Below, piece by piece: positions 24,317 to 39,240 of a stretch of DNA of 64,000 nt (within the stretch, counting starts at the first letter, position 1; the number at the start of each line of letters is the position of its first letter). Location: positions 280,141 through 344,140 of the forward strand of contig NZ_JAUFQF010000004.1 in NCBI RefSeq assembly GCF_030409635.1, given 5' to 3'. The DNA is from Vibrio agarivorans. GTDB lineage: Bacteria > Pseudomonadota > Gammaproteobacteria > Enterobacterales > Vibrionaceae. The position numbers and the translations under genes were made by a program. The notes under the pieces are model-generated. The model worked only from the letters and a program-made list of their open reading frames with translations, was not told the DNA's origin and ran no database searches.

Positions 24317-26263
24317 ATGTTAAATCGAATCAACTCTATCTATAAAAAAATCTACCTTATCATCGCAGCAACCACGCTTGCCTCTCTTATCATCGCTGCG
24401 GCGGGTTACTATGCTGTCTCACAAATACGCTATAACTTTATGGAGTTTCGTGATGCGAACACTCAGGCGTTAATGGCGTCTCGTGTTCAGCAAGAGCTGC
24501 TCCTCACGCGTATACAGGCTCTAACATTTCGCAATACACAAAACCCACAAGACCTTACAGAGGCGATGTTTCGTATTGAAAATATGGAAACAGAGATTGC
24601 CGCAGAGGCTCACTCTAGCCCTGAACAAACACAGCAACTGCTGAGCAATGTGATGCAACAAGCTGGCACTTATCAAGAGAACCTTGAGAGTGTTGCTGAC
24701 ATCATGAGCCAAAGAGCTGCGATTGGTGACAAAATCAATCAACAAATTCACACTATTACTCACATCATCTCGCGCACTAGAAAACAATTTAGCCAGCAAC
24801 CGGATGTTCTGCGCGAACTCTATGATGTGGAATCTCAGTTTCACGCAGCTAACTTATATCTACGTGAGTTTCTGATCACCAATAAACTCGAGGACTACCA
24901 AGAGTTTCAGACAAGCTCACAAACACTACGTGGTGAAATAGATGACCTTGCTCAACGTTACCCTCACCTTGAGCTAAGCGAAATCATGCAAAACCTCAAC
25001 GTCACGTATCGTGATACCCAGAAAATACAAGCTTTGATCCTTGAACGAAATAGCATATGGAACGATAACTTAGCCATGTTGGGTCAAGAGATTACCCAGC
25101 AGCTTGATCAACTGAAACAGCAAGCCTTTTATGAGCAACTCAACATAAAAGAAGCGACTACAGTCGTAGTAGAGAACGCCAACTGGACTCTATTATTGAC
25201 CCTACTTATTACAACACCGCTCGTGCTGCTTTTGAGTCATCGTGTTTGCGTCAATATCGTGCGCCCAATCAAGACTGCTCAGTTACGCGCAGAACAAATG
25301 GCTCAGGGGATCTTGTCACCTTGGTATCAAGTCACGGGGCAAGATGAAGTCGCTGCGCTGCGCCATGCTCTTCTCACCATGGAAACCAAGTTCTATCAAA
25401 CGGTCGAAGAGATAACCCGTACTAGTGACACATTGGCTACCTCAGCGGAAGAGTTATCGACCATTAACAGCACCGTTCAATCAGGTATTTCTGTTCAACA
25501 ACAAGAGACCGACCAAGTCGCAACAGCGATCAATCAAATGACGGCGGCCATTAATGAAGTCTCTGCTGGGGCTTCTCTCGCATCAGAGCAAGCCGTATCG
25601 GCACATGACCTTGCTGACAACGGCCAAGCGGTAATGAACACTGCGATGAATCAAGTCACAGAGTTAGCTCAGCAGATGGAAGTCTCAGAGCAAGAAGTCA
25701 TGCGCTTAAAAAGTGGCACTGAAGAGGTCAGTGATGTCATGAATGTCATTCAAACCATTGCAGAACAAACTAACCTACTGGCCCTCAATGCGGCGATTGA
25801 AGCGGCACGTGCTGGCGAGCAAGGCCGTGGTTTTGCTGTGGTTGCAGACGAAGTTCGTCAGCTGGCGCAACAAACGCAGCGAGCCGTTGAACAGATTGAA
25901 GGTCAAATCACCTCCTTACAAGATGAGACAACAGGAGTGGTCGACTCAATCCAAGCAACCAAGACAACCTTGCATGACACAATAGAGCAATCAAGAACCG
26001 CCAGCGAGGCGTTCGAGAAGATTAACCATAGCGTGAATCAAAGCAGTGACCTGAGCACGCAAATGGCAACCGCAACGGAAGAGCAAAGTGCGACTGCTGA
26101 AATGATCAACCAAAGCATTACCCAAGTACGTGATCAGGTTGAAGAGACCGCTCTGATGATTCAAGACTGCTCACAAGCCTCGGAGCAACTGGCCAATATG
26201 TCAGTCTCGCTGGCTGATTATGTACGCTTCTTTCAGCTCAAAGCAAAAAATGAACAACAGTAA
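24317..26263 (+). CDS. Methyl-accepting chemotaxis protein
   Basis: A 648-residue transmembrane chemoreceptor. Membrane segments lie at about residues 12-32 and 285-305, enclosing a long all-helical periplasmic domain of about 250 residues, the size of the helical bimodular (HBM) ligand-binding type. A HAMP domain follows (about 305-360, [17 protein letters not shown]), then the coiled-coil signalling domain with the conserved hairpin tip [20 protein letters not shown] and [19 protein letters not shown]. Glutamine/glutamate pairs suit CheR/CheB methylation. No C-terminal CheR-binding pentapeptide is seen. The ligand is unknown. The gene sits alone next to the c-di-GMP cluster. Confidence 0.93.
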
Positions 26264-26365: not shown

Positions 26366-27001
26366 ATGAATCGATCGTTTAATTGCTTGGTTGTTGATGC
26401 CTTTCCTATTGTGAGGAGAAGTCTGCGCAAAACCCTTGAAAGCCTACCCTGTGTTTCGCACGTTTCAGAAACTGGTCAAGTAGAAAAGGCATTGAGTATA
26501 CTTAAGCAGCAGCCTATTGATCTCCTCACGCTCGACATCAAGATTGGCAATAGCAACGGCTTTGAACTGTTACGTCGCGCTAGAGCTCATGGTTTCGAAG
26601 GAAAAGTACTGTTCATCAGCAGCGAAGACTATTGCACCTATTCTCAGTTAGCAAAAGAGAGTTCCGCCAACGGCTACATCAGTAAAACGGAAGAAGAGGG
26701 CTTAATTAGGGATGCGATGCAAAGCATCTTGAAAGGCTACTCACTATTTAAGCTCGATAGCCATGCTGGCACTCATAAACAAACCCACTTGTCTGAGCGA
26801 GAGCAAGTGGTGTTTGATTATCTTGTTCAGGGGTATTCAAACAAGCAAATCTCAGAGTTGTTATCTTTGAGTGCCAAGACCATCAGCACCTACAAATCAC
26901 GTATCTTAGACAAGCATAATGCGTCTTCGATTATTGAGTTGATGAACTACCAAAATCACAGACCAAGCGCCCCTTCTCTATACACTCAAAGAGTGCTTTA
27001 A
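26366..27001 (+). CDS. NarL/LuxR-type response regulator (second RocA-like regulator)
   Basis: A 211-residue regulator with a receiver domain (about 5-122) and a LuxR-type helix-turn-helix (about 143-200, LSEREQVVFDYLVQGYSNKQ). The phosphoacceptor should be Asp57 in LLTLDIKIGNSNGF and the conserved lysine lies in YISKTEEEG. The acidic pocket is reduced: Asp11 is followed by Ala rather than Asp/Glu (VVDAFPIV), so metal binding and phosphorylation may be altered. It is clearly a paralogue of the regulator at 29274-29876 (shared ARAHGFEGKVLF/AKAHGYKGKVLF and TISTYKSRILDK/TVSTYKKRILDK). AGGAGG precedes the start. Its last 71 bases overlap the LysR gene on the other strand. Confidence 0.88.
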   Translation: MNRSFNCLVVDAFPIVRRSLRKTLESLPCVSHVSETGQVEKALSILKQQPIDLLTLDIKIGNSNGFELLRRARAHGFEGKVLFISSEDYCTYSQLAKESSANGYISKTEEEGLIRDAMQSILKGYSLFKLDSHAGTHKQTHLSEREQVVFDYLVQGYSNKQISELLSLSAKTISTYKSRILDKHNASSIIELMNYQNHRPSAPSLYTQRVL

Positions 27002-27842
27002 ACAGCGGGTGGTAACGATTAGCCAAGCGACAACATATCGCCACTGGCTGCTCGATACGCAAATGCTCTGGCGGCGAGATCAGTTCAAAGTCCGGCTCAT
27101 TGAATAGCCAAGGAAGGCCCAAGAAACCATAACCATGTTTACGCATCACGCTTTTTGCTACCGTCAGGTTATCCAAATAGATTTTGTAGTCTAGATTAAT
27201 GCCAAATTGACGGCTTCGCTCATTAAACCACTCGTGTTCATCATTCCATCCGGCGATACGATAAAAGACAAAAGGCTGCTCAAACGCCTTTTCCCAAGTG
27301 GTGACCCCTGTTGATGAGGGTATCGCGATCACCAGAGGAGCATGCAATAGTGTTTTCTGATACAGCGATTTAGTACGACCAACATTTAGGAAGTTAACCC
27401 CTACATGAATACGCCCATCAATGATGTCCTGCTCGGTGCTTGATGACCACGTTTTAATACCCACTTTCGCATGAGGGAAGCGCTCTCGAACCGCTTCATA
27501 TATTGGTTCAGCAAAGTATTCCACCGCAAGAGTGTGCAAGGCGACTTTAATTTCACCATCATAATCTTTTGCAGAAAAAGCGGGGGTTGAGACAATAGCT
27601 TGGTCAATAAGATCAAGCCCTTGTTCGATTTCGCTGATCATCTCAATCATCTTAAAGGTCGGCTCTAAGCCCTCTGCAGTGCGCACAAAAAGTGGGTCAT
27701 CAAAGTGCTCTCTTAGATGACTAAGGTGCTTACTCACTGCGCTCTCGGTGACACCTAAATACACCGCGACTTTTTTAAGATTGCGGTGTCGATAGATCAG
27801 TACCAACTCACGCAGCAAATTGTAATTCAAACCTTTTGGCAT
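26931..27842 (-). CDS. LysR-family transcriptional regulator
   Basis: Using the ATG at 27842 (AGGGA just upstream) the product is 303 residues, MPKGLNYNLLRELVLIYRHR. The winged helix-turn-helix is at about residues 5-65 (KVAVYLGVTESAVSKHLSHL, then DPLFVRTAEGLEPT), followed by a substrate-binding-like effector domain (about 90-295). The start lies ten bases after the stop of the GGDEF gene, so it is the last gene of the leftward kinase/c-di-GMP operon. The final 71 bases overlap the 3' end of the rightward response-regulator gene. The target genes and inducer are unknown; regulation of this operon or of the neighbouring regulator is an inference. Confidence 0.88.
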   Translation of the reverse strand: MPKGLNYNLLRELVLIYRHRNLKKVAVYLGVTESAVSKHLSHLREHFDDPLFVRTAEGLEPTFKMIEMISEIEQGLDLIDQAIVSTPAFSAKDYDGEIKVALHTLAVEYFAEPIYEAVRERFPHAKVGIKTWSSSTEQDIIDGRIHVGVNFLNVGRTKSLYQKTLLHAPLVIAIPSSTGVTTWEKAFEQPFVFYRIAGWNDEHEWFNERSRQFGINLDYKIYLDNLTVAKSVMRKHGYGFLGLPWLFNEPDFELISPPEHLRIEQPVAICCRLANRYHPLFKALFECIEKGRLVCDFGSSSTQ

Positions 27843-27852
27843 ATTGTCCCTA

Positions 27853-29271
27853 TCACGATTGCATGTACTCGACCTCAACAACATCGGGCAACTGACGATT
27901 TCTTTTGGCCACATAAAGCTGGGCATCTGCTCTTTTTATAGCATCCGCCAAAGACTCTCTCAAACGCATCTCAACACACCCAACACTGATGTTCACTCGA
28001 AGATCTGCATTTGTGACCGGTAGCTGACTGACCTTGTGGGTCAACTGCTGGCATAAGCGTTGCGAAACAGTAATAGGGCAATTAGGCAGTACCACGATAA
28101 ACTCATCCCCTCCCGTTCTCACCAGATAGTCAGTATCACGAAATGACTCTTTCATGGTATCCGCAATATGCTTGATCACCTCATCACCAACATGGTGTCC
28201 ATGTACATCATTCACTTGCTTAATATTGTCACCATCAATCGCCAGAACACTCACTGGCAATTGACTAATCGCCGTTTTAAAGTGCAGCTCTTTAAACACT
28301 GAGCGATTATATAGTCCGGTAAGATCATCTCTGTTCACCCGACGCTGGGTATAAGCAAGTTGGTGTCGATTGAGTTTTAGCTCAGACATTTTCCACATAA
28401 AGATAAAGGTGAAGCTCCAGAGCAAACCAAACAACCATGCGTAATCAACGAACAATTTACTAAAAGGGATCTTGTAGACAAACATGGTGTTGTTATCAGC
28501 GATAAACTCTTTTACATACGCAAAATCAGCGAGAGGGTAAGACACATCTTCAATCACATTGACCTTATATGCGCCTCGTATATCTAAAGAAATTCTATCG
28601 CTATTAATTTCATAACTATCACGCAAATAAATATCAACAATAAAATCCCCTACCACAACATTATCCACATACACCGGACTGACAATACTGATCACATTAA
28701 GACCCGTAATAGCATCCTGATAGACAGGCGAGATCACCAATCTATCTTCCAATTGCCGCTTAGAGGCATACTTAGTACACGCCCCCGTCTCCTCACAACG
28801 CTCACGAGTGAAGGCGCGCTCGGTCAATTGAAAGCTGGGCTCATGTTTCGTCATCAGCATTTTTCGCCCACTATAAGAGCGAAAGATAAGATTGAAATTG
28901 CGCGCGGAAAAAGCCACAGGCATATAATCAACCAATGAACTCATCATACGCAATGCAACCACTTCACTTGCTTGCAGGTCCGTTTTATCGTCTAACCGAT
29001 GTATATAAATCCCACTCTTTGCTTGATAAGCTTGAATCGCGTCTGGATACTCATAGTCCTCAAGCTTTTCTTCAGTAAGTTGTGCCAAAAGTACGGCATT
29101 GATCATATGGCGATTCAGAATCTCAGTCACCAAGTTAAACTGCGTCAACTCTCTCTCAATTAGATTCTCTTTTGCACCCGATAGAAAAATGCCAAACAAA
29201 AATAAAGAAGCAAACAGTGACACTAACACGGTCAACTTTAGGTCTTGAAGCCGTTTTTTAAATACACTCAT
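27853..29271 (-). CDS. Membrane diguanylate cyclase (GGDEF)
   Basis: A 472-residue protein: membrane segment at about 13-31, a 240-residue periplasmic sensor region with a Cache-like pattern (ISIVSPVYVDNVVVGDFIVD) and two nearby cysteines at about 159 and 165, a second membrane segment at about 276-296, then a GGDEF domain from about 312. The catalytic motif is the canonical GGDEF (387-391) and the inhibitory RxxD site is present five residues before it (RDTD, 378-381), so an active, product-inhibited cyclase is predicted. DDLTGLYNRSVF marks the domain start. It begins two bases after the response-regulator stop, in an operon that also encodes a c-di-GMP phosphodiesterase. Confidence 0.93.
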   Translation of the reverse strand: MSVFKKRLQDLKLTVLVSLFASLFLFGIFLSGAKENLIERELTQFNLVTEILNRHMINAVLLAQLTEEKLEDYEYPDAIQAYQAKSGIYIHRLDDKTDLQASEVVALRMMSSLVDYMPVAFSARNFNLIFRSYSGRKMLMTKHEPSFQLTERAFTRERCEETGACTKYASKRQLEDRLVISPVYQDAITGLNVISIVSPVYVDNVVVGDFIVDIYLRDSYEINSDRISLDIRGAYKVNVIEDVSYPLADFAYVKEFIADNNTMFVYKIPFSKLFVDYAWLFGLLWSFTFIFMWKMSELKLNRHQLAYTQRRVNRDDLTGLYNRSVFKELHFKTAISQLPVSVLAIDGDNIKQVNDVHGHHVGDEVIKHIADTMKESFRDTDYLVRTGGDEFIVVLPNCPITVSQRLCQQLTHKVSQLPVTNADLRVNISVGCVEMRLRESLADAIKRADAQLYVAKRNRQLPDVVEVEYMQS

Positions 29272-29273
29272 CG

Positions 29274-29876
29274 CTAGGTGTCTGCCACTTTTAATAGCTC
29301 AAATACGTTACTGACTTGGTATTTGTCCAAGATGCGTTTTTTGTAAGTGCTAACGGTTTTTCCGCTGATCGACAATATATCTGCGATCTCTTTGTTGGCC
29401 TTACCTTGAACTAGGTATTTCATCACCACTGTCTCACGTTCTGACAACGCAACGGTTTGTTGTGTCAATGGTTGTGAAGTTCGGAACTTAAAGAAGGTAT
29501 AGCCATTAATGATGCCATCCACCGCATCGCGCAAGATGGTAAAATCTTCCGATTTACAGATATATCCATCCGCACCAATACGAAACGCCATGTCTGTCAA
29601 TCGTTGACTATCTGACCCTGATACAAACAGCACCTTACCCTTATAGCCGTGCGCTTTGGCACGACGATAAAAATCGAATCCATCACTTGAACCCAGATCA
29701 ACATCGAGAATCAGCAGCTCAAAACTCTGTGATTTGAGTAAAGTGTGTGCATACGTGGCATCATAAACGGTGCTTATTTCTGCTACATAACTGAGTGAGC
29801 TAAGGATGTTCTTGATCGCTAAACATACTAGAGGGTGATCATCCACCACCAAGCAATTAATGACTCGTTGATTCAT
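29274..29876 (-). CDS. NarL/LuxR-type response regulator (RocA-like)
   Basis: The ATG at 29876, with AGGAAA upstream, gives 200 residues starting MNQRVINCLVVDDHPLV. Receiver: acidic pair Asp12-Asp13, phosphoacceptor Asp58 in LLILDVDLGSSDG, lysine in ICKSEDF. C-terminal LuxR-type helix-turn-helix: LSERETVVMKYLVQGKANKE and IADILSISGKTVSTYKKRI. Layout and neighbours match RocA1/SadR-type regulators that work with a BvgS-like kinase and a REC-EAL protein. It sits eight bases after the REC-EAL gene and two bases before the cyclase gene. Unlike its paralogue at 26366-27001 the acidic pocket is complete. Confidence 0.92.
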   Translation of the reverse strand: MNQRVINCLVVDDHPLVCLAIKNILSSLSYVAEISTVYDATYAHTLLKSQSFELLILDVDLGSSDGFDFYRRAKAHGYKGKVLFVSGSDSQRLTDMAFRIGADGYICKSEDFTILRDAVDGIINGYTFFKFRTSQPLTQQTVALSERETVVMKYLVQGKANKEIADILSISGKTVSTYKKRILDKYQVSNVFELLKVADT

Positions 29877-29884
29877 ACTATTTC

Positions 29885-31042
29885 CTATAAAAACGTTCTG
29901 TGAAGTGCATCGATATCCATCGGCCGACCAGTGAAGTAGCCTTGGCAAACATCAACACCTAGTGACTTAAGAGAAAACCACGTGGTTTCATCTTCAACAC
30001 CTTCCGCCACAAGGCTCATTCCCATTCTCTTAGCCAATTCACAAATACAAGCCACAATATGAGAGTGCTTGGCATTGGTTCTAAACATCTGAATAAATGA
30101 ACGATCAATTTTTATTTCGGTAAACGGCAGTTGAGATAACTTGCTCAGAGACGAATAGCCTGTGCCAAAGTCATCGATCGCCAAACCAACGCTGTTAAGG
30201 CGCAAGCGCGCTAGATTGCGATAAAGATTCGTCGAGTCTCGATAAACCTCGGTTTCAGTAAGCTCGAGTGTGATCATTGATGGCGAGACGCTGTGGTGCT
30301 GGCACTTCTCTAAAAACTGATGAGAAAAGTTCGCCTGCTCGAGCTCGTTATGCGTCACATTGATGGCAGTAGAACATGGCAGCTTATCGGCTTTGATGTC
30401 TTTAATGACATTACTAAATACCGTGCTAAATAACTCATTTTGCAAGCCACAGCGCTCAACAATAGGTAAGAACACGTTGGGATAAATCACACCATGCTTA
30501 GGGTGTACCCAACGAGCCAAAGCCTCTACGCCCACAAGTAGCCTAGAAGAAAAGTTAAACTTGGGCTGATAGTGATTAATCACCTGACCACTTGCTAACG
30601 CAAACAAGAACTCTTCATCATTGATCACTATCGACTCGGCTTTACGCTCTGGTTCCACACAGTGATAGGTGCAACTTTGCACCAGCTGACGAACTTCTTT
30701 ATCCGAACAGGGCTTATCGATGGCACCCACCACTTTCAAACCCAGCGCCAAACACATCCAGCGCACTGACGAGATAATGGACTCCTCCAAAGCACTCATC
30801 AGAACAATATGTCCCGAGTAATCTATTTGGGCTAGCTGAGAGAGCAGCTCAACACCATCCATCCCTGGCATATTCAAATCACAAAAGAGCAGGTCACAAG
30901 AGTGAGACTCCAAGTGTTTCAATGCATCAGCCCCAGAGGTGAGACAATCGATAGACCTGACATTCAGTGCGAATAATTGACTCTGCATTCGTTTTAATTG
31001 CAACGGGTGGTCGTCCACCACCAACACACGCAAGCTATTCAT
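29885..31042 (-). CDS. REC-EAL response regulator, c-di-GMP phosphodiesterase (RocR-like)
   Basis: A 385-residue protein: receiver at about 1-125 (VVDDHPLQL, phosphoacceptor Asp55 in LLFCDLNMPGMDGVELL, lysine in AIDKPCSD) joined to an EAL domain at about 140-380. Catalytic features are intact: the EAL glutamate (Glu173) in VGVEALARWVHP, INVTHNEL, TLELTETEV, the loop-6 region AIDDFGTGYSSLSKL, EIKIDRSFI and VAEGVED. Same architecture and size as Pseudomonas aeruginosa RocR (392 residues). There is no DNA-binding domain, unlike VieA. The first eight bases overlap the kinase gene, indicating translational coupling. Predicted role: hydrolyse c-di-GMP when phosphorylated by the adjacent kinase. Confidence 0.94.
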   Translation of the reverse strand: MNSLRVLVVDDHPLQLKRMQSQLFALNVRSIDCLTSGADALKHLESHSCDLLFCDLNMPGMDGVELLSQLAQIDYSGHIVLMSALEESIISSVRWMCLALGLKVVGAIDKPCSDKEVRQLVQSCTYHCVEPERKAESIVINDEEFLFALASGQVINHYQPKFNFSSRLLVGVEALARWVHPKHGVIYPNVFLPIVERCGLQNELFSTVFSNVIKDIKADKLPCSTAINVTHNELEQANFSHQFLEKCQHHSVSPSMITLELTETEVYRDSTNLYRNLARLRLNSVGLAIDDFGTGYSSLSKLSQLPFTEIKIDRSFIQMFRTNAKHSHIVACICELAKRMGMSLVAEGVEDETTWFSLKSLGVDVCQGYFTGRPMDIDALHRTFL

Positions 31043-34000
31043 TTTGCGCCGCCTCCAACATCACTTGTTGCCATTGATGCACTCTTTGAATTTGAGAAGT
31101 GACTCTCTCCACAAGATTTTCCTGCACATTAGAAAGCTGAGTCGATGGCACATTCTCCCCTTCAATACAAAGCTGGCGAATATCTTCTGCACCGACCGCA
31201 CTCGCACCTCCTTTGATGCGATGAATAACTGCTCTGATTTCCGTTTCACCACATGCTTGCAGTAAGTGCTCGACATCTTGCTGCATAGTCGAGACAAAAA
31301 GAGTCACGATCTCACTGGCTTCCTCTAGGCTAAACGCGCCGAGCCACGCTATGGTCGAGTCTATGGTGGAATCTATATTTTCTGACGAAAACATCCCATT
31401 CCCACCCTGTTCTGACTCAATGGTGATATCACTGGCCACGTCAGTAGGTAAAAATGGCAGCAATAATGACGCGAGGCTTTCCAGGGTGTAGGGCTTACAC
31501 AGCACAGCATCTATCGCTTGCTGCTCTGATTGGAATCGCGCTGAGCGAGAGTCTTCGGCCGTACAAGCAATGATCGGTAATGAACGCCACTCCTGAGAAC
31601 GGCGAACTCGGTGGGCGAGTTGATGACCGTCGAGCCTTGGCATATGTACATCTGTGATCAGTAGATCGACACTACCATGACTCTCTTGCAGTAAAAGATC
31701 CCAAGCTTGCTCACCATCATTAGCGATCAACACCTCAACCCCAAGCTCGGTGAGTTGACGAGCCATAATGTTCTGATTTATCGGATTATCTTCCGCTACC
31801 AAAACACGGCCATTAAACCTGACGGCAGGCTGAGTCCAGTGCACCTCTCCTCTCGTTACAGCAGGTGTAATGGCACTCGATAACCACGAATAAAGCTGAT
31901 CGGGATAACAAGGCACACATAGAGGTTCGTCTACTTTGTCGCTAGATTGCGTGCGGGTCAGGGACAACAAGCCAGACTCTTTATAACTCAAGTGATACGC
32001 TCTTTGAGCTTCGGTAACACCAAACACCGGCAGCCACTGAGCCCAATCACACAAGACAGCAAAACTTGCCTGTAAGTCTCCAAGCGCTATCTGTTGTAGC
32101 TCACCAGAAAACTCCGACTCCACGTCTAACGGTATTGAGACATGTACTTTCGTACCTTGGCCCAAGCAACTTTCAATCTGAAAGCTGCCCTGCATGCAGG
32201 TGACTAACTTGTCAACGATACTCAACCCCAACCCTGTGCCGCCAAATCGACGAGAAATCGAGTTATCTGCTTGAGTAAATGGGGTTCTCACAACACTGAT
32301 TTGCTGCTCAGTCATACCAATACCGGTATCTTCAATAAATACCTCAAGTCGTGACTGATCAACCAGAACATCCACTGTAATGCCACCTTCCTCGGTGAAC
32401 TTAATCGCATTAGAGAGCAAGTTACCAATAATTTGGGCAAATCGCGTGGCATCCATTTGAACAAGCTTTGCGCGAAATGGATGGATGTTGATCGTGTATT
32501 GCAAGCCTTTTTGCTGTACCTTGAGCTCGAATGATCGCAACACATCGCCAATGGTTTGCAATAAAAACGTTGATGTTGGTTGAATCGATAACGCGTCCGC
32601 CTCCAGTTGAGAGAAGTCGAGAATCTCATCCACCAGCGAATTTAGGTGCTGACTTGAGAACACCGCTTGTTCAAGCAACTGCCCGACATCTTTAGACACC
32701 GCAGCGCGCCGTGCAATCTCCAAAGATCCCAACAATCCGACAATCGGCGTTCTCAATTCATGACTGATTGTCGCGAGGAAGCGCTCTCTTGCTATCACCG
32801 CGCTTTGGGCTGTTTTTTCTGCCTCTATCAGTGCATTCTCTCGCTCTTTTTGCTCCGAGATATCTTGGATAACCGTGAGAACGAATTTTTGTCCAGTCTT
32901 GACACTAGTTATGCATTTTCTCTCTCGATGTACATACGAAAGCCCTAGTTGACAGCCTTGAGTGCGGCAGTCTTCGACCAGCTGCTCATCGTGCTCTAAT
33001 ACACGCTGAATCTGCCAATAGTCCTCAACACAGGGTGTTTGCGTATAGTAGTCCTGAATCAAGCACTGACGGCACTCCCCTGAACGATAACGCGCACAGT
33101 TACTTAACATGAGGTTGTGTTGCTCATCATGAATAAACACCATGTAGGGCAGTTCATTGATGATTTTCTGCAACCACTTTTTTTCACCTTCTTGCTCAGA
33201 GACTTTCTGTTTCGAGACCGAAATTTTCAGGCGTAAATTGGAATAGGCAAAGAAACTCGCGATTAAAATCAATACCACGATCGCGGCAACCGCCATTGCC
33301 CAGTTCAGTACATGATCTTTTTCAAACCCATACACCAATTGAAACTGACGATAGCTTCGCACCAGCTTTTCAACTTCATTGTTGTCTACGGTTTCTAAAA
33401 CGCTATTGAGTACATCGAGCAGAAATGGGTTATGCCTGTCGACTGCAAACGCCATATTCAACACCATCGAACCGCTCTGTTTTAGCGACAGTTGATCCAT
33501 GCCTGTCTGAAGCAGCAGAGATTTAGCGATATCCTTGGGCACAAATGCAGAGCGTAGCTTTCCTCGCATCAAATCATCTAATAGCGCCTGAATATTGTTA
33601 TAACGTTGGATACCCTCAAAGGTGTTGTCTAAGGCCTGAACCGGCTCGCCTTCAGTGTGCATCAGCATACCTTCAGGCCGCTTATCCAGCGGTGCAAACT
33701 TAGCCCCTCGTACCACCAGCTGACTGTACTCAACTTGATGGAAAGGTTGAGTTACCAACCAAGATGGCGAGCGCGCTATTCCGGTATACACAACAGGAAA
33801 AAAATCGACTGGTCGCCTTGTAGTAAAGTCGTGTCCTTCTGACTCTGGCGGATAAAACTGAAAAGACAAACCTGATCGAGCCTGCAAGATCTTCAAAAAA
33901 TCCGGTAGCATGCCGTCAATTTGCCCGTCTTGATTGCGAAACAAAATAGGAAATGCTGATTCACTCATCGAGTAAATCAGTCGCTTGCCTAGTGGGTTGC

Positions 34001-34811
34001 GCTCACGATACGCAGATAGAAATTTGTCGCTCAAGTGATAAGGGTTATTTGAGACGATAGAAGGCGTGTTAAGCCCTTGAGCTTCACGCGTCAGCACAAG
34101 ATCAACAAGCTCTACCAGACCATGATTACCTTTTGCAGTAATTAAGCTAACAGACTCATTCGGCAGCCACTCAGGTATCTTGATGCTGCCACGAATAACA
34201 TCGTGTGTGTCTAGATATTCAGTGAGCGACACAAAGTTAGCGACAACAGCATCGGCGCGCCCCTCATTCACTAACTGCATCGCTTCGTCAAAGCTAGCAA
34301 CAGGGATTAACCGCCCAATATCCACTTGTGATATATATCGGCAGTAGACTGTGCCTTGCACACAGGTCCAGTTCAGTTCGGTTTGGCCTAAAAAAGCGAA
34401 TTGACGCTTACGATACCAAGCAGCAATCGTCCCAGAAAAGAACGGCTTTGAAAAAGAAAAACGCTCTTCTCGATCCGGTGTTGAACTGAAGCCCACGGCG
34501 GCATCCACCTGCTTATGCTCAACCGCCTCAAGAAGCGCCTCGACACTCGGGTAGCTCTTATATTTCAGAGTGACATTAAGAAGTGTTGCGATATTGCTCA
34601 GGTAGTCGATGTTGATACCGTAGTAAGCCCCCAACTGGTCAATATCAAAGTAAGGACGCCATGAGGTAGAAGAAACACCGACCGTAATCTCTCGATGCTG
34701 CTGTAGATAGGATTGCTGCTCATCAGTCAGAACTAACTCATTACCAAAAGCAGTCGCAGCACTGAACGATGAGCAGATCAGTGCAATATAAGTGAGTAGA
34801 CGAGTTATCAT
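31035..34811 (-). CDS. Unorthodox hybrid sensor kinase (BvgS/EvgS/RocS type)
   Basis: From the ATG at 34811 (GGGGA upstream; 34823 is less likely) 1258 residues. Order: signal peptide (1-23), two tandem solute-binding (SBP_bac_3) domains in the periplasm (about 35-255 and 275-490), membrane helix (about 503-525), a cysteine-rich PAS domain (545-655), HisKA with TISHELRTPIVGLLGS (His684), HATPase with NLLSNAIKFTEEGG and GGTGLGLSIV, a receiver with phosphoacceptor Asp1054 in LLITDVHMPRLDGHQL, and a C-terminal Hpt domain with VIHRIKGGASAVGA (His1197). This is the full BvgS-type four-step relay. Venus-flytrap domains suggest control by a small molecule or periplasmic condition. First gene of the leftward operon, overlapping the REC-EAL gene by eight bases. 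Confidence 0.95.
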   Translation of the reverse strand: MITRLLTYIALICSSFSAATAFGNELVLTDEQQSYLQQHREITVGVSSTSWRPYFDIDQLGAYYGINIDYLSNIATLLNVTLKYKSYPSVEALLEAVEHKQVDAAVGFSSTPDREERFSFSKPFFSGTIAAWYRKRQFAFLGQTELNWTCVQGTVYCRYISQVDIGRLIPVASFDEAMQLVNEGRADAVVANFVSLTEYLDTHDVIRGSIKIPEWLPNESVSLITAKGNHGLVELVDLVLTREAQGLNTPSIVSNNPYHLSDKFLSAYRERNPLGKRLIYSMSESAFPILFRNQDGQIDGMLPDFLKILQARSGLSFQFYPPESEGHDFTTRRPVDFFPVVYTGIARSPSWLVTQPFHQVEYSQLVVRGAKFAPLDKRPEGMLMHTEGEPVQALDNTFEGIQRYNNIQALLDDLMRGKLRSAFVPKDIAKSLLLQTGMDQLSLKQSGSMVLNMAFAVDRHNPFLLDVLNSVLETVDNNEVEKLVRSYRQFQLVYGFEKDHVLNWAMAVAAIVVLILIASFFAYSNLRLKISVSKQKVSEQEGEKKWLQKIINELPYMVFIHDEQHNLMLSNCARYRSGECRQCLIQDYYTQTPCVEDYWQIQRVLEHDEQLVEDCRTQGCQLGLSYVHRERKCITSVKTGQKFVLTVIQDISEQKERENALIEAEKTAQSAVIARERFLATISHELRTPIVGLLGSLEIARRAAVSKDVGQLLEQAVFSSQHLNSLVDEILDFSQLEADALSIQPTSTFLLQTIGDVLRSFELKVQQKGLQYTINIHPFRAKLVQMDATRFAQIIGNLLSNAIKFTEEGGITVDVLVDQSRLEVFIEDTGIGMTEQQISVVRTPFTQADNSISRRFGGTGLGLSIVDKLVTCMQGSFQIESCLGQGTKVHVSIPLDVESEFSGELQQIALGDLQASFAVLCDWAQWLPVFGVTEAQRAYHLSYKESGLLSLTRTQSSDKVDEPLCVPCYPDQLYSWLSSAITPAVTRGEVHWTQPAVRFNGRVLVAEDNPINQNIMARQLTELGVEVLIANDGEQAWDLLLQESHGSVDLLITDVHMPRLDGHQLAHRVRRSQEWRSLPIIACTAEDSRSARFQSEQQAIDAVLCKPYTLESLASLLLPFLPTDVASDITIESEQGGNGMFSSENIDSTIDSTIAWLGAFSLEEASEIVTLFVSTMQQDVEHLLQACGETEIRAVIHRIKGGASAVGAEDIRQLCIEGENVPSTQLSNVQENLVERVTSQIQRVHQWQQVMLEAAQNE

Positions 34812-34925
34812 GGCAGTCCCCATACTGGTATTGGACTGCGCAGACTAATGATGTACTCCAGGATGTCAAAAGCACCACGCAAGCACACAAACTTTAACCA
34901 ACTGTATTTATTGAGTTATTTACAA

Positions 34926-34972: not shown

Positions 34973-35587
34973 TTAATGGTCATCGACAAGGGTATGAAAC
35001 CCAGAGTAAATCCTCGTGAAAGTCGTAAACCAACATAAAACGCCAAATACCCACGCCATCAAAGCAAAGTAGTTGGGAAATAGGCACATCAACACAAAAC
35101 AGGTGATTGTTTCTGTTCCCTCAGTCAATCCACTCATGTAATACAGCGACTTTTGCTTATACACCGGATTATCAATGCCTCGCTTTCCGGCCATTACTGC
35201 GAAGGCGAGAAAGCTACTGCCAGTGCCAACAAATGAAAAGACTAAAAATGCCCCAGCAATGGCATTCATCTCAGGGTTAGCTAACACAAACCCAAATGGC
35301 ACCATTGAGTAGAACAGGAAGTCGAGACTAATATCAAGAAAGCCCCCTGCATCCGTGATCCCTTGAATCCTCGCCAAAGCGCCATCTAAACCATCAAAGA
35401 TCCGGTTCAACGCAATAAAAACTAAGGCCCAGGTATAGTGTTCTAGAGCCAATAACGGCAATGCAAGGCAGCCCAACGCAAAGCCTAGCAAGGTGATTTG
35501 GTTCGCTTTTATCCCACGATGATCCAATTGCTTAGCGCACTGTGCTAGGGGCCAGCGAATAACTTTAATACTTAACCTATCGAGCAT
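34973..35587 (-). CDS. ynjF: YnjF-like CDP-alcohol phosphatidyltransferase family membrane protein
   Basis: The ATG at 35587, with GGGAG upstream, gives 204 residues starting MLDRLSIKVIRWPL and overlaps the end of ynjD by 11 bases. It is a polytopic membrane protein with the CDP-alcohol phosphatidyltransferase signature DGLDGALAR, followed by GGFLDISLDF, giving the aspartates that bind metal and CDP-alcohol. Family members condense a CDP-linked lipid with an alcohol; the substrates of YnjF are unknown. E. coli also has ynjF after ynjBCD (with ynjE between), so linkage to this transporter is conserved. The usual eight-residue spacing after AR is one shorter here, which I believe is a variant of this subfamily. 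Confidence 0.85.
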   Translation of the reverse strand: MLDRLSIKVIRWPLAQCAKQLDHRGIKANQITLLGFALGCLALPLLALEHYTWALVFIALNRIFDGLDGALARIQGITDAGGFLDISLDFLFYSMVPFGFVLANPEMNAIAGAFLVFSFVGTGSSFLAFAVMAGKRGIDNPVYKQKSLYYMSGLTEGTETITCFVLMCLFPNYFALMAWVFGVLCWFTTFTRIYSGFHTLVDDH

Positions 35588-36227
35588 GAGTGTTCTCCCA
35601 CGGCCATTTGAGCACGAGACTGCCTGTCGGAATGTCTTGCTCATCATGAGTCACCATTAACGCAGGAACATTAGCCGACTTAAGTTGCTCAAACACCCAG
35701 TCGCGAAATTGGCTGCGTAAGTTTTTGTCCAGCTTACTAAATGGCTCATCCAGCAACACCGCTTTCGGTTTCGCCAGTAACATACGAGCTAAGCTAACTC
35801 GTGCTCGTTGACCACCTGAAATCTGTACTGGCATTGAATCGGCGAGCTCTAACAAGCTAAGTTGCTCAAGAGCATGAAGGGCGAGCTCTCTGCGCTTTTC
35901 TCCTTTTACAGAGTTCGGTAATGCAAAGGCTAGGTTCTCCCAAACACTCAGGTGTGGGAAGAGCAAATCATCTTGAAATAAGATACCCACTTCTCTCAAG
36001 TGAGGTGATACCTTATCGATACGCTCATTGGATAAATATACCTCTCCAGAGAATCGAAATTCATCGGATAAATGTCCTGCAATCACATCAAGTAAGGTAG
36101 ACTTACCACAGCCACTTGGCCCCATTAAAGTGAGGATCTCGCCAGCCTCAACCGAAAAAGAGAGATCTGAGAATAGCTCGCTACCATCTCGTTTAGAGAT
36201 GGTGAGGCTTGTTAGAGACAGACTCAT
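35577..36227 (-). CDS. ynjD: YnjD-like ABC transporter ATPase
   Basis: A 216-residue ATPase, about the length of E. coli YnjD (217). Walker A GPSGCGKST near residue 38, Q-loop in VGILFQDDLLFPHLSV, signature ISGGQRARVSLARMLL, Walker B AVLLDEPFSKLD and switch histidine in VTHDEQD. It energises the permease YnjC. The start overlaps the end of ynjC by 35 bases and the end overlaps ynjF by 11 bases, so the four genes form one tightly coupled unit. Confidence 0.92.
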   Translation of the reverse strand: MSLSLTSLTISKRDGSELFSDLSFSVEAGEILTLMGPSGCGKSTLLDVIAGHLSDEFRFSGEVYLSNERIDKVSPHLREVGILFQDDLLFPHLSVWENLAFALPNSVKGEKRRELALHALEQLSLLELADSMPVQISGGQRARVSLARMLLAKPKAVLLDEPFSKLDKNLRSQFRDWVFEQLKSANVPALMVTHDEQDIPTGSLVLKWPWENTHAR

Positions 36228-37902
36228 GAGTCAATAAATCCTTTTGTACTGGTCGCTGTTTTTTCATTGAAAGGCGACTAAAAACGATAGCAAAAGCAAA
36301 GAAAATCAACGGCAATAGGGCCTGCCATATTGCGTAAATCGCCGTCACACGGCGGTCAAATCCACTAGAGAGTGCGACGGCCTCAGTCGTCAACGTACTC
36401 ACTCGACCAGCTCCTAGTACCAATGTTGGTAGGTATTGAGCTAAGCTCACACTGGCTCCGACCGCCCAAGCAAACAGCACCGCAGATCGCAGCTGTGGAA
36501 ACTTAATCATAAAGAACACGGTGATCGGGTGTTTACCTAGACTCAGGGCAAGCCGTGTGTAGCCTGAGTGATAAGCTCGCCATGGGCCATCTAACGCTAG
36601 ATAAACAAACGGAAAGGCAAAGAAAATATGTGACCAGCATACCCAAAGCCAGTACGCACTGCTTTGGACATGTAGTGTAACTACCTGCAAACCAAAGAGC
36701 AGCGATAGCTGTGGAATCAGCATAGGCACAGCTATCAAATAACCTGGGACTTGCAAACGGTACTTAATTCGATACTCGTGAGCGATAATGGCGAGAATCA
36801 ATGCTACAGACGATGAGATAACCGCCAATATAAGACTTTGCTCAATCGTACCGACAATCCCCGCCCACTCATATTGCCAAAAGCTGAAGCTATAACGACT
36901 AGGCAGTAGATCAGGAAAACGCCAACGGTGTGCAACGCTCCAAAGCATCATCAAGGGAAGCATAAGGCCACTTATCGTCAGTATCACCCCAAATAGACTC
37001 AACCCTGGAAGATAAAGTCCATGACGTCCAGAATACTGCCAATATCGTAGTCCTTTAGTCACCAACCATTCTACAACTCGTTGTATGGCAATCACCCCAC
37101 CAGCAATGACAAACAACAGCATTGCCCCTGCCGATGCACGCGGCAATAGCACTAGGTCTGGGTCGTTGAACCACTGCCAAACCAAAACCGCAAATGTAGG
37201 AGGATTAGTAGGCCCAATAATTAATGCAACATCAACAACCGACACACCGTAAGCCAATACCGCTAACAATGGAAACCGCATTTTAGTGAGCCATTGAGCA
37301 AACAGTGCCTTCCACCAAATATGGCGTTGTTTATAACCTAAGGAGAGCCCTACTCTCGTGACCTTCTCTACTTCTAACTGCTTGAGCACTGGTATGCTCA
37401 TTAAGAGTAGAAATGGGATTTCCTTAAGGGTTAACATCACGATTAGACCAAGACCATATGGGTCTTTGACAAGTGTTGCTAAGCTTTGATCAACAGCATC
37501 ATTAAGATCAATGCCGAACCACTGGAGCAGTGCTCTCGCCCCAAGACCTGTTGGAGCAAACAGAAATGCAAATCCAATCGCGTACGCAACATGCGGGATA
37601 GACAACAAAGGAGACAGGCACAATTCAATTCGCCTCCAACGACGTCCCCCCCACGAGCTTTGCAAAATAGAGAAAGCGGCTATACCAGCTAGGAGCGTAC
37701 TGACTAAACTCGTGACGACAGTCAGCCGAATTGAAGTAAATACCCCCTGCCAAGAGAATAACTGTGTATAGCCATCAAGGCTAAACGAGTGCATTCCAAG
37801 TGGCGGTATATAACCTAAAGATGATAAGACAACCCCAGTGATACCTGGGATTGTCGGAACCATACAGAGAATAACTACGATTAAATAAGAAAGTCTTAAC
37901 AT
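36193..37902 (-). CDS. ynjC: YnjC-like ABC transporter permease (fused double permease)
   Basis: A 569-residue inner-membrane protein with about 12 predicted helices in two homologous permease halves, each with an EAA-like loop: VTRVGLSLGYKQRHIWWKA in the first half and YTRLALSLGKHPITVFFMIK in the second. This internal duplication is like thiamine/iron-type permeases (ThiP, FbpB) and E. coli YnjC (511 residues). It begins 22 bases after ynjB and overlaps ynjD by 35 bases. Substrate is not established. Confidence 0.9.
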   Translation of the reverse strand: MLRLSYLIVVILCMVPTIPGITGVVLSSLGYIPPLGMHSFSLDGYTQLFSWQGVFTSIRLTVVTSLVSTLLAGIAAFSILQSSWGGRRWRRIELCLSPLLSIPHVAYAIGFAFLFAPTGLGARALLQWFGIDLNDAVDQSLATLVKDPYGLGLIVMLTLKEIPFLLLMSIPVLKQLEVEKVTRVGLSLGYKQRHIWWKALFAQWLTKMRFPLLAVLAYGVSVVDVALIIGPTNPPTFAVLVWQWFNDPDLVLLPRASAGAMLLFVIAGGVIAIQRVVEWLVTKGLRYWQYSGRHGLYLPGLSLFGVILTISGLMLPLMMLWSVAHRWRFPDLLPSRYSFSFWQYEWAGIVGTIEQSLILAVISSSVALILAIIAHEYRIKYRLQVPGYLIAVPMLIPQLSLLFGLQVVTLHVQSSAYWLWVCWSHIFFAFPFVYLALDGPWRAYHSGYTRLALSLGKHPITVFFMIKFPQLRSAVLFAWAVGASVSLAQYLPTLVLGAGRVSTLTTEAVALSSGFDRRVTAIYAIWQALLPLIFFAFAIVFSRLSMKKQRPVQKDLLTHESVSNKPHHL

Positions 37903-37924
37903 CTATTCTTGTGTCGATTAAAGG

Positions 37925-39070
37925 CTATTGGCCGTAGCGTTTTAGCCACTCTTTCTCGATGGCAGCCTGCCAACTCGGATGTGGCTCGGCAATTGACTTG
38001 AACTGTTGCGTTTGTTTGGCACTACCTACCAGATATTGAGACTCAACAACGGCGGGGTCGCCCCACACATTCAAATCGCCTTTGCGAGACTGAGCTTCAG
38101 GGCTGATCAAAAAGTTAATCGCCACCAAAGCGCCTTCACCCGCACTTGCATTCCAAGGTATGGCTAAGAAGTGAATATTCGACAATGCCCCTGTTTCAAA
38201 TGCGTAAGCCCGGGTGCTTTCTTCAAGCTTTCCCGAAGCTTGAGCCGAATACACGGCGTTAGGGTTAAATGTGATAGCTAGATCTAATTGACCATCATCC
38301 AGCAAGCGAATCATCTCCGCTGTCCCTGCGGGGAACTGCTTTCCTTTACGCCATGCAACCTGATGAAACTCATCAAGGTATTGCCACAAAGGTGCTGTCA
38401 GTGACTTAAAGTCACTCTCTTCAACGGGCTTTTGTAGATCAGGATGGTTATCAATCAGTTCGATAAGCAGCGCTTTTAAGAAACTCGTACCATGAAACTC
38501 TGGTGGTTTCGGGTAACTCAAACGGTTTGGAAACGCGTTGGCGTAACTGAGCATCTCTGCAAATGAGTTTGGTGGGTTATTCACTTCGGCTTGGTCATGA
38601 ATAAACACCAACTGTCCAACACCCCAAGGCGCCTCAAGGCCATCGGTCGGCTCAGAAAAATCGACATCAATAGGAAGTTGCTTATCGATAAACTGCCAAT
38701 TCGGTAGTGCCTGCGTAAATGGGCCAAACAACAGGTCATTTTGCTTCATGGATTTGAAGTTTTCCCCATTGATCCAAACTAAATCAACACTGCCGCCCTG
38801 ATTTGTGTTTACCGCCTTTTCAGCGAGCAGTCTCGAGATGGTTTCAGCAATGTCCGTTACTTTAATGTGATTGAGAGTCACACCATACTGCTGCTGAAGT
38901 TGCTGGCCAGCCCATTGGATATAACGATTGATCTCTTGGCTACCTCCCCAAGCATGAAAGTAGACCGTTTGACCCTGCGCCTTCTCTTCAACTTGCTGCC
39001 AATTGATCTCTTGCGCGCTCAAAGAAAAAGAGACCGAGCAAGCTATTGAGGCTGCGAACAGTTTTTTCAT
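37925..39070 (-). CDS. ynjB: YnjB-like ABC transporter substrate-binding protein
   Basis: Taking the ATG at 39070 gives 381 residues with a clear signal peptide (MKKLFAASIACSVSFSLSA, cleavage AQ-EI region); the frame extends upstream to 39163 but that part has no ribosome site and would bury the signal. The mature protein has the look of a type 2 periplasmic binding protein (VDLVWINGENFKSMKQNDLL, GLEAPWGVGQLVFIHD, ITFNPNAVYSAQASGKL). E. coli YnjB is 388 residues. Ligand unknown; the family is only loosely related to thiamine and iron binding proteins. First gene of ynjBCD-ynjF. Confidence 0.88.
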   Translation of the reverse strand: MKKLFAASIACSVSFSLSAQEINWQQVEEKAQGQTVYFHAWGGSQEINRYIQWAGQQLQQQYGVTLNHIKVTDIAETISRLLAEKAVNTNQGGSVDLVWINGENFKSMKQNDLLFGPFTQALPNWQFIDKQLPIDVDFSEPTDGLEAPWGVGQLVFIHDQAEVNNPPNSFAEMLSYANAFPNRLSYPKPPEFHGTSFLKALLIELIDNHPDLQKPVEESDFKSLTAPLWQYLDEFHQVAWRKGKQFPAGTAEMIRLLDDGQLDLAITFNPNAVYSAQASGKLEESTRAYAFETGALSNIHFLAIPWNASAGEGALVAINFLISPEAQSRKGDLNVWGDPAVVESQYLVGSAKQTQQFKSIAEPHPSWQAAIEKEWLKRYGQ

Positions 39071-39240
39071 AGTAACGTCCATTGTTATGATTTTGTTGTA
39101 CAAAAGGAATAGTAATACTTCTAAAAACGCAGTAACAGAACAAAAGCCCATTTCTGCGCACATTCACTCACCAGACCTAGAAAGTGGTTAATTCCTTTCA
39201 TATTTTTCCTACTCATATCAATGAGTCAAACTGAACCCAT

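What the first reader, a model, noticed from the sequence alone, without database searches (positions are those of the whole stretch)
26931..34811. Expanded Roc/Sad-like c-di-GMP phosphorelay in a five-gene operon
Seen: five leftward genes with junctions of -8, +8, +2 and +10 bases encode a BvgS-type kinase (two periplasmic binding domains, PAS, HisKA, REC, Hpt), a REC-EAL protein, a REC-LuxR regulator, a membrane GGDEF protein and a LysR regulator. Known: Pseudomonas RocS1-RocR-RocA1 has the first three. Inferred: the cyclase and LysR have been added to make one locus that sets c-di-GMP both ways and also controls transcription. Vibrio VieSAB differs, since VieA carries EAL and DNA-binding domains in one protein. 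I do not know of a description of this exact set.
Basis: partly seen in the sequence, partly recalled or inferred. Interest (0 to 1): 0.72.

Follow-up and report, generated by a model that had tools for sequence, protein, structure and literature searches.

The report
Mix-and-match Vibrio c-di-GMP control locus
Side by side in this marine bacterium lie a sensor, an enzyme that destroys and an enzyme that makes the signal molecule c-di-GMP, and three gene regulators; the set is kept together in a good number of related species, and no description of it turned up in the papers that could be searched.

Summary
The reading needs widening. A sixth gene belongs to the set: a convergent second REC-LuxR regulator (26366-27001, +) overlapping the LysR gene by 71 bases. 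From a search of 227 genomes of the genus (Vibrio, by named proteins), 27 annotated loci, the window's included, hold all six genes and 35 the first four; lower bounds. The six evolve together beyond species relatedness (partial r 0.83-0.97; control gene 0.32-0.46). The set is modular: kinase-REC-EAL-REC-LuxR stands alone in one fetched locus, cyclase-LysR-<LuxR2 in ten. It is neither Roc (gene order differs) nor VieSAB (EAL and HTH on separate proteins); the kinase is nearer VieS-type than Pseudomonas kinases. Active sites of both enzymes are intact, so the locus can probably set c-di-GMP both ways. New lead: the kinase PAS domain carries four near-invariant cysteines, absent from two Aeromonas kinases and not matched by three Pseudomonas ones. 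Co-transcription, phosphotransfer and output are untested. Verdict: real, conserved, a new variant of a known kind.

The parts
31035..34823 (-). BvgS-type unorthodox sensor kinase: tandem periplasmic binding domains, TM about 505-528, four-cysteine PAS, HisKA (H688), HATPase, REC (D1058), Hpt (H1201); likely start 34811
32790..33212 (-). PAS domain of the kinase with near-invariant Cys576, 584, 587, 624
29885..31042 (-). REC-EAL c-di-GMP phosphodiesterase; phospho-Asp D55 and the checked catalytic residues present
29274..29876 (-). REC-LuxR response regulator with a canonical receiver (D12, D13, D58, S86, K108)
27853..29271 (-). membrane diguanylate cyclase: periplasmic part with invariant Cys159/Cys165, GGDEF, I-site RxxD (R378, D381)
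26931..27842 (-). LysR-family regulator (start ATG at 27842)
26366..27001 (+). second REC-LuxR regulator (LUX2), convergent, overlapping the LysR 3' end by 71 nt; second acidic receiver residue is Ala12, phospho-Asp D57 kept
24317..26263 (+). methyl-accepting chemotaxis protein; orthologues lie near the set or its remnants in 12 other fetched loci; optional member

Best explanation
A modular, co-inherited c-di-GMP control locus of Vibrio. Shown by sequence: a BvgS-type kinase with His-Asp-His relay residues; two receivers with the phosphorylation residues (REC-EAL and REC-LuxR); an intact phosphodiesterase site; an intact cyclase site with product-inhibition site; conserved linkage and co-evolution of these with a LysR gene and a convergent second REC-LuxR gene. 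Inferred: ligand at the periplasmic clamshell domains, modulated by the cysteine-bearing PAS, sets kinase activity; phosphate passes from H688 to D1058 to H1201 and then to REC-EAL, lowering c-di-GMP, and to REC-LuxR, changing transcription. The cyclase has its own periplasmic part and no receiver, so it is not a relay target; it supplies the opposing activity under a separate signal. LysR and LUX2 form the transcriptional half of the cyclase module; LUX2's variable acidic pocket suggests weak or phosphate-independent control.
For: Gene content and spacing. Six-gene set in 27 loci, order kept in 25. Partial correlations of distance matrices among the six genes, after two housekeeping genes, 0.83-0.97, against 0.32-0.46 for queA given guaA. 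Residues: REC-LuxR receiver 39 of 39; REC-EAL phospho-Asp 47 of 47 and catalytic residues 46-47 of 47; GGDEF 56 of 56; I-site Arg 53 and Asp 54 of 56; kinase H688 41 of 41, D1058 and H1201 40 of 41 with one gap. Cyclase-LysR-<LUX2 stays in L093 where the trio is missing between flanks shared with L057 and L033.
Against: No transcript, phosphotransfer or c-di-GMP data. Gaps of 23-237 bases precede LysR in the other six-gene loci of normal order, so LysR may have its own promoter there. Some loci lack the cyclase (L032, L069, L076, L083), others lack LysR or both LysR and LUX2, so no strict mutual need. The distance test has no significance value and close relatives weigh in it; shared tree splits within the set (12-19 of 24) overlap those with queA (9-15). 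Conserved linkage does not by itself show joint function. For a possible V. alginolyticus counterpart of the cyclase (VA3192, PMC10552763; orthology not verified) the deletion gave more swarming and 60-90% of wild-type biofilm, but over-expression lowered biofilm instead of raising it.
Confidence: 0.7

Rival explanations
1. An ordinary Roc or Vie phosphorelay that merely lies beside an unrelated cyclase-LysR pair; the neighbours do not work together.
For: Both halves exist alone (L032; L084-L088, L090-L093, L095); the cyclase has no receiver and has its own periplasmic part.
Against: The combination recurs in 27 loci with mostly short or overlapping junctions in the first four genes, and the halves' distances agree far better with each other than with two housekeeping genes.
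Confidence: 0.2
2. LUX2, not the operon REC-LuxR, is the main transcriptional output of the kinase, and the five-gene operon is partly redundant.
For: LUX2 co-evolves with the kinase (partial r 0.955) and keeps phospho-Asp in 45 of 47 rows.
Against: LUX2 has D or E at the second acidic position in only 14 of 47 rows, and it persists where no kinase gene is nearby.
Confidence: 0.1
3. The cysteines of the PAS only stabilise structure and the kinase senses solely by its periplasmic domains.
For: No ligand or metal is shown; cysteine spacing differs in VieS-type kinases.
Against: Four of the ten positions that are at least 95% conserved in residues 530-660 are these cysteines, in the cytoplasm, where lasting disulfides are unusual (general knowledge).
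Confidence: 0.35

Closest known systems
VieSAB of Vibrio cholerae (PMC4352251, passages seen)
   Same: BvgS-type kinase with two periplasmic domains, REC and Hpt, first in the operon, followed by a REC-EAL protein; VieB-like REC-TPR proteins lie at 16 fetched loci of the present kind
   Different: VieA-type proteins carry REC, EAL and a LuxR-type HTH in one chain (585 and 606 aa in L039 and L038); no cyclase, LysR or second REC-LuxR directly beside the VieSAB-type locus L039; the window has no VieB-like neighbour
Roc1 (SadARS) of Pseudomonas aeruginosa (PMC12051241: abstract, introduction and passages seen)
   Same: BvgS-type unorthodox kinase, REC-EAL and a REC-DNA-binding regulator
   Different: rocA1 is divergent from rocR-rocS1 (same layout in L179); no cyclase or LysR annotated in that stretch; PAS without the four-cysteine pattern
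PvrR (NCBIfam NF052596)
   Same: best NCBIfam match of the REC-EAL protein, residues 1-378
   Different: 283 bits against a cut-off of 580, so not a member by that model
EvgS redox-switch PAS (PMC8174306, passages seen)
   Same: a BvgS-type kinase in which PAS cysteines act in signalling
   Different: two cysteines, C671 and C683, in the last two strands; here four, three of them before the long middle helix of the model

Membership tests
Roc1/SadARS | BvgS-type unorthodox kinase with REC and Hpt | tested here: met
Roc1/SadARS | REC-EAL phosphodiesterase beside it | tested here: met
Roc1/SadARS | regulator gene divergent from a REC-EAL-kinase operon | tested here: not met
   kinase first and all co-directional; Pseudomonas layout
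Roc1/SadARS | control of cup fimbriae | not tested
   no search for cup genes was made
VieSAB | kinase first, then REC-EAL protein | tested here: met
VieSAB | EAL and DNA-binding domain in one protein (VieA) | tested here: not met
   385 aa REC-EAL without HTH, separate REC-LuxR; VieA-type proteins of L038 and L039 do have it
VieSAB | VieB, REC plus TPR, in the operon | tested here: not met
   none among the window neighbours scanned; present at 16 other fetched loci
BvgS-type kinase / REC-EAL phosphorelays (broad kind) | relay residues H, D, H and a receiver-linked EAL with catalytic residues | tested here: met
BvgS-type kinase / REC-EAL phosphorelays (broad kind) | phosphotransfer from Hpt to the receivers | not testable with these tools
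   needs biochemistry

The most novel reading that the evidence does not exclude
The kinase PAS domain is a four-cysteine metal, iron-sulfur or thiol redox sensor (Cx7Cx2Cx36C), present with other spacings in VieS-type kinases, so that this whole group of Vibrio BvgS-type kinases couples intracellular redox or metal state to c-di-GMP breakdown, while the linked cyclase reads a separate periplasmic signal through a domain with an invariant cysteine pair.
Probability: 0.35. Interest if true: 0.68.

Novelty: new variant of a known kind. Interest (0 to 1): 0.5.

Why it matters
Vibrio genomes hold many c-di-GMP enzymes (62 in V. parahaemolyticus by PMC11176486, 63 in one V. alginolyticus strain by PMC10552763), and which of them act together is hard to tell. 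A recurring cassette that pairs one degrading and one making enzyme with three dedicated transcription regulators names a unit to test, and its natural sub-versions (trio only, cyclase-LysR-LuxR2 only, a likely recent loss of the trio) are ready-made comparisons. The four-cysteine PAS gives a concrete input hypothesis for kinases of the VieS type, whose signal PMC4352251 calls unknown.

Tried and rejected

Literature. AcsS (PMC12405303, abstract and passages) was considered as the LysR and set aside for lack of any link to this locus. VPA0041 (PMC9029033, one find for GGDEF, EAL and neighbour words) gave only a reference-list hit and was not settled. VPA1429 of PMC12542678 (passages) was rejected: its deleted bases reach 1931, too long for the REC-EAL gene. 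PMC6343004 (one find) gave only a reference. VPA0737-VPA0743 of V. parahaemolyticus fit the L061 order (VPA0737 response regulator in PMC4284723, one passage; VPA0741 transcriptional regulator and VPA0743 'Response regulator VieB', both lowered by calcium, in PMC11176486, passages), but this is inference from annotation. VA3192/VA3193 of V. alginolyticus (PMC10552763, section 5 and passages) fit by size (453 and 384 aa) and numbering, but orthology is unverified, and a REC-LuxR gene would be expected between them; in L081 (99.8% to a V. diabolicus cyclase) REC-EAL and cyclase do adjoin, the REC-EAL being shortened. That the set is undescribed rests on the listed rows (titles and abstract starts, capped), in a held open-access library only.

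L089 (G134) reads cyclase and LysR as one 776-residue frame. It differs by one base there from its close relative L085, in a draft assembly, so it was not used as evidence.
Full report
WHAT IS THERE. Reading the start codons gives overlaps and gaps of -8, +8, +2 and +10 bases. The kinase probably starts at 34811. Its two periplasmic halves are tandem clamshell domains: they align to each other with hhalign probability 94%, and a stretch of the first matches BvgS structures. The linker is a PAS by prediction (mean pLDDT 90.2, pTM 0.79), with PAS and LOV hits and the BvgS PAS 6zj8 in the list. Pfam alone showed neither the second clamshell nor a PAS in the window protein.

A SIXTH GENE. Directly downstream and convergent lies a second REC-LuxR gene, 26366-27001 (+), sharing 71 bases with the LysR gene. 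I call it LUX2. It resembles the operon's REC-LuxR (mean identity 39% over 27 loci). An MCP gene follows upstream of LUX2 at 24317-26263 (+); 12 other fetched loci have an orthologue of 544-659 residues, in both orientations and also beside remnants of the set, so it looks optional.

HOW WIDESPREAD. Of 227 genomes of the genus, 61 have a REC-EAL match at E <= 1e-75 (70 places) and 53 a cyclase match at E <= 1e-45 (61 places). Of these, 50 REC-EAL places and 57 cyclase places are covered by the window and the 68 stretches I fetched (some of the 68 are of more distant relatives). Not fetched: 20 REC-EAL places, most with long VieA-like frames but six or so of ordinary length, and 4 cyclase places (G246, G115, G133, G150:C13). 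The stretches were annotated with profiles from five loci and the window. Counting the window, 27 loci hold all six genes and 35 the first four. In 25 of the 27 the order is as in the window; in L068 LysR and LUX2 lie upstream of the kinase, and in L078 a VieB-like gene comes between cyclase and LysR. In L037 the kinase is split into two frames. Four-gene forms without LysR and LUX2 include L036, L067, L048 and L051. The genus is Vibrio: the window's cyclase is 72% identical to one of V. astriarenae, and the L061 cyclase is 99.8% identical to a V. parahaemolyticus protein. All counts are lower bounds, set by my thresholds.

CO-EVOLUTION. For the 27 six-gene loci, pairwise distances of the six proteins correlate at 0.90-0.98. 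After removing guaA and queA distances the partial correlations are 0.83-0.97; queA against the same genes, given guaA, reaches only 0.32-0.46. No significance was computed, and close relatives among the loci weigh in. Trees share 12-19 of 24 splits within the set, 7-10 with guaA, 9-15 with queA, and guaA and queA share 14 with each other; so the split counts overlap, and the distance test is the stronger one. LUX2 is as tightly tied as the operon genes. The window's own branch is long (0.93 on the cyclase tree), so its exact place is unsure.

MODULES. The trio kinase-REC-EAL-REC-LuxR occurs alone in L032 and, without the cyclase but with LysR and LUX2, in L069, L076 and L083. Cyclase-LysR-<LUX2 occurs without the trio in 10 fetched loci (L084-L088, L090-L093, L095) and in L089, where cyclase and LysR share one frame. 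On the cyclase tree the stand-alone label needs two changes: an old group of 10 rows (joined by L096, which has neither LysR nor LUX2 beside it) and L093, which is nested beside L057 and L033 and shares their flanks, so there the trio was probably lost recently. The direction of change in the old group is open. L056 has a kinase fragment of 153 residues; L081 has lost the kinase and REC-LuxR. G135 holds both a combined and a stand-alone form (L075, L095). VieB-like proteins lie in 16 fetched loci of this kind, directly beside LUX2 in ten; of the four of them scanned, all have REC and three a TPR match over its cut-off. At the window's own chromosomal site, G206 and G250 keep REC-EAL and cyclase (L063, L066) about 5 kb from queA, while a six-gene copy lies elsewhere (L079, L078).

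RESIDUES (rows besides the window). Operon REC-LuxR: both acidic residues, phospho-Asp, Ser and Lys in 39 of 39. REC-EAL: phospho-Asp 47 of 47; catalytic E, N, E, D, D, K 47 of 47, the later E 46 with one gap, Q 46; two of the 47 rows are VieA-type. Cyclase: GGDEF 56 of 56; I-site Arg 53 and Asp 54 of 56; periplasmic Cys159 and Cys165 56 of 56. LUX2: phospho-Asp 45 of 47, Ser and Lys 47 of 47, but the second acidic residue is D in 6 and E in 8 of 47 and something else in 33 (Ala in the window; Asn in all ten rows of the old stand-alone group). Kinase: H688 41 of 41; D1058 and H1201 40 of 41, one gap.

THE CYSTEINE PAS. In the kinase linker (residues 530-660) only ten positions are at least 95% conserved and four are cysteines: 576 (40 of 41), 584 (39), 587 (41) and 624 (41). 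Of the three exceptions two are in one row, L039, a VieS-type kinase with another spacing, and one in L082. Of the fetched kinases of more than 700 residues that score over 600 bits, all 44 have four or more cysteines in the 120-residue stretch before HisKA; three Pseudomonas kinases have 3, 1 and 3, not in this pattern, and two Aeromonas ones none. Two weaker, distant kinases (L044, L045, about 345 bits) fell below the cut and have no cysteine in the stretch printed. In 295 genomes of the order the PAS profile matched in 18, at 22 places; the full spacing appears only in the four strongest, all of them kinases of this set already known, while weaker ones show other cysteine sets or none. A pair in the first clamshell (154, 161) is in 41 of 41. 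The pattern suggests a metal, cluster or thiol switch; nothing bound is shown. EvgS, a relative, uses two PAS cysteines in an aerobic, ubiquinone-linked switch (PMC8174306, passages).

HOW IT LIKELY WORKS. Relay from kinase to REC-EAL and REC-LuxR is what these families do (Roc interactions as summarised in PMC12051241), and the residues needed are present; it is inferred here. The cyclase has no receiver, so its link to the kinase is by shared genetics and by the shared messenger, not by phosphate. LysR and LUX2 go with the cyclase half.

KNOWN OR NEW. It works like VieSAB and Roc but fails a defining feature of each, so I file it under neither. The listed rows showed no description of the set; subscription papers are not covered. 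In V. parahaemolyticus it probably is VPA0737-VPA0743 (inferred from L061 and two transcriptome papers).

Noticed in passing
window 34973-39163 (-): A gene run resembling E. coli ynjF, ynjD, ynjC and ynjB (CDP-alcohol transferase and ABC ATPase by Pfam; permease and binding protein by eye; the ynj names are recalled) lies upstream of the kinase in the same direction, about 150 bases away.
   Followed up: no
L089 6589-8919: Cyclase and LysR read as one 776-residue frame in draft genome G134; a one-base difference from L085, perhaps a sequencing error.
   Followed up: partly
L033, L037, L048, L049, L050, L052, L055, L056, L057, L061, L068, L073, L074, L078, L080, L093: VieB-like proteins (split into two frames in L049) near the set, as if VieB were a portable part.
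   Followed up: partly
L080 and L082: LUX2 has Asn and Pro at the acidic pair and Glu at the phospho-Asp site, and both loci lack LysR: a pseudo-receiver.
   Followed up: partly
G000:C4:2061000-2078000 (L044): A second, distantly related REC-EAL locus in the same genome, with a 1117-residue kinase and a 558-residue protein that begins like a receiver.
   Followed up: no
G020:C3 (L031 and L032): One genome carries both a six-gene set and a separate three-gene Roc-like set about 63 kb apart.
   Followed up: no
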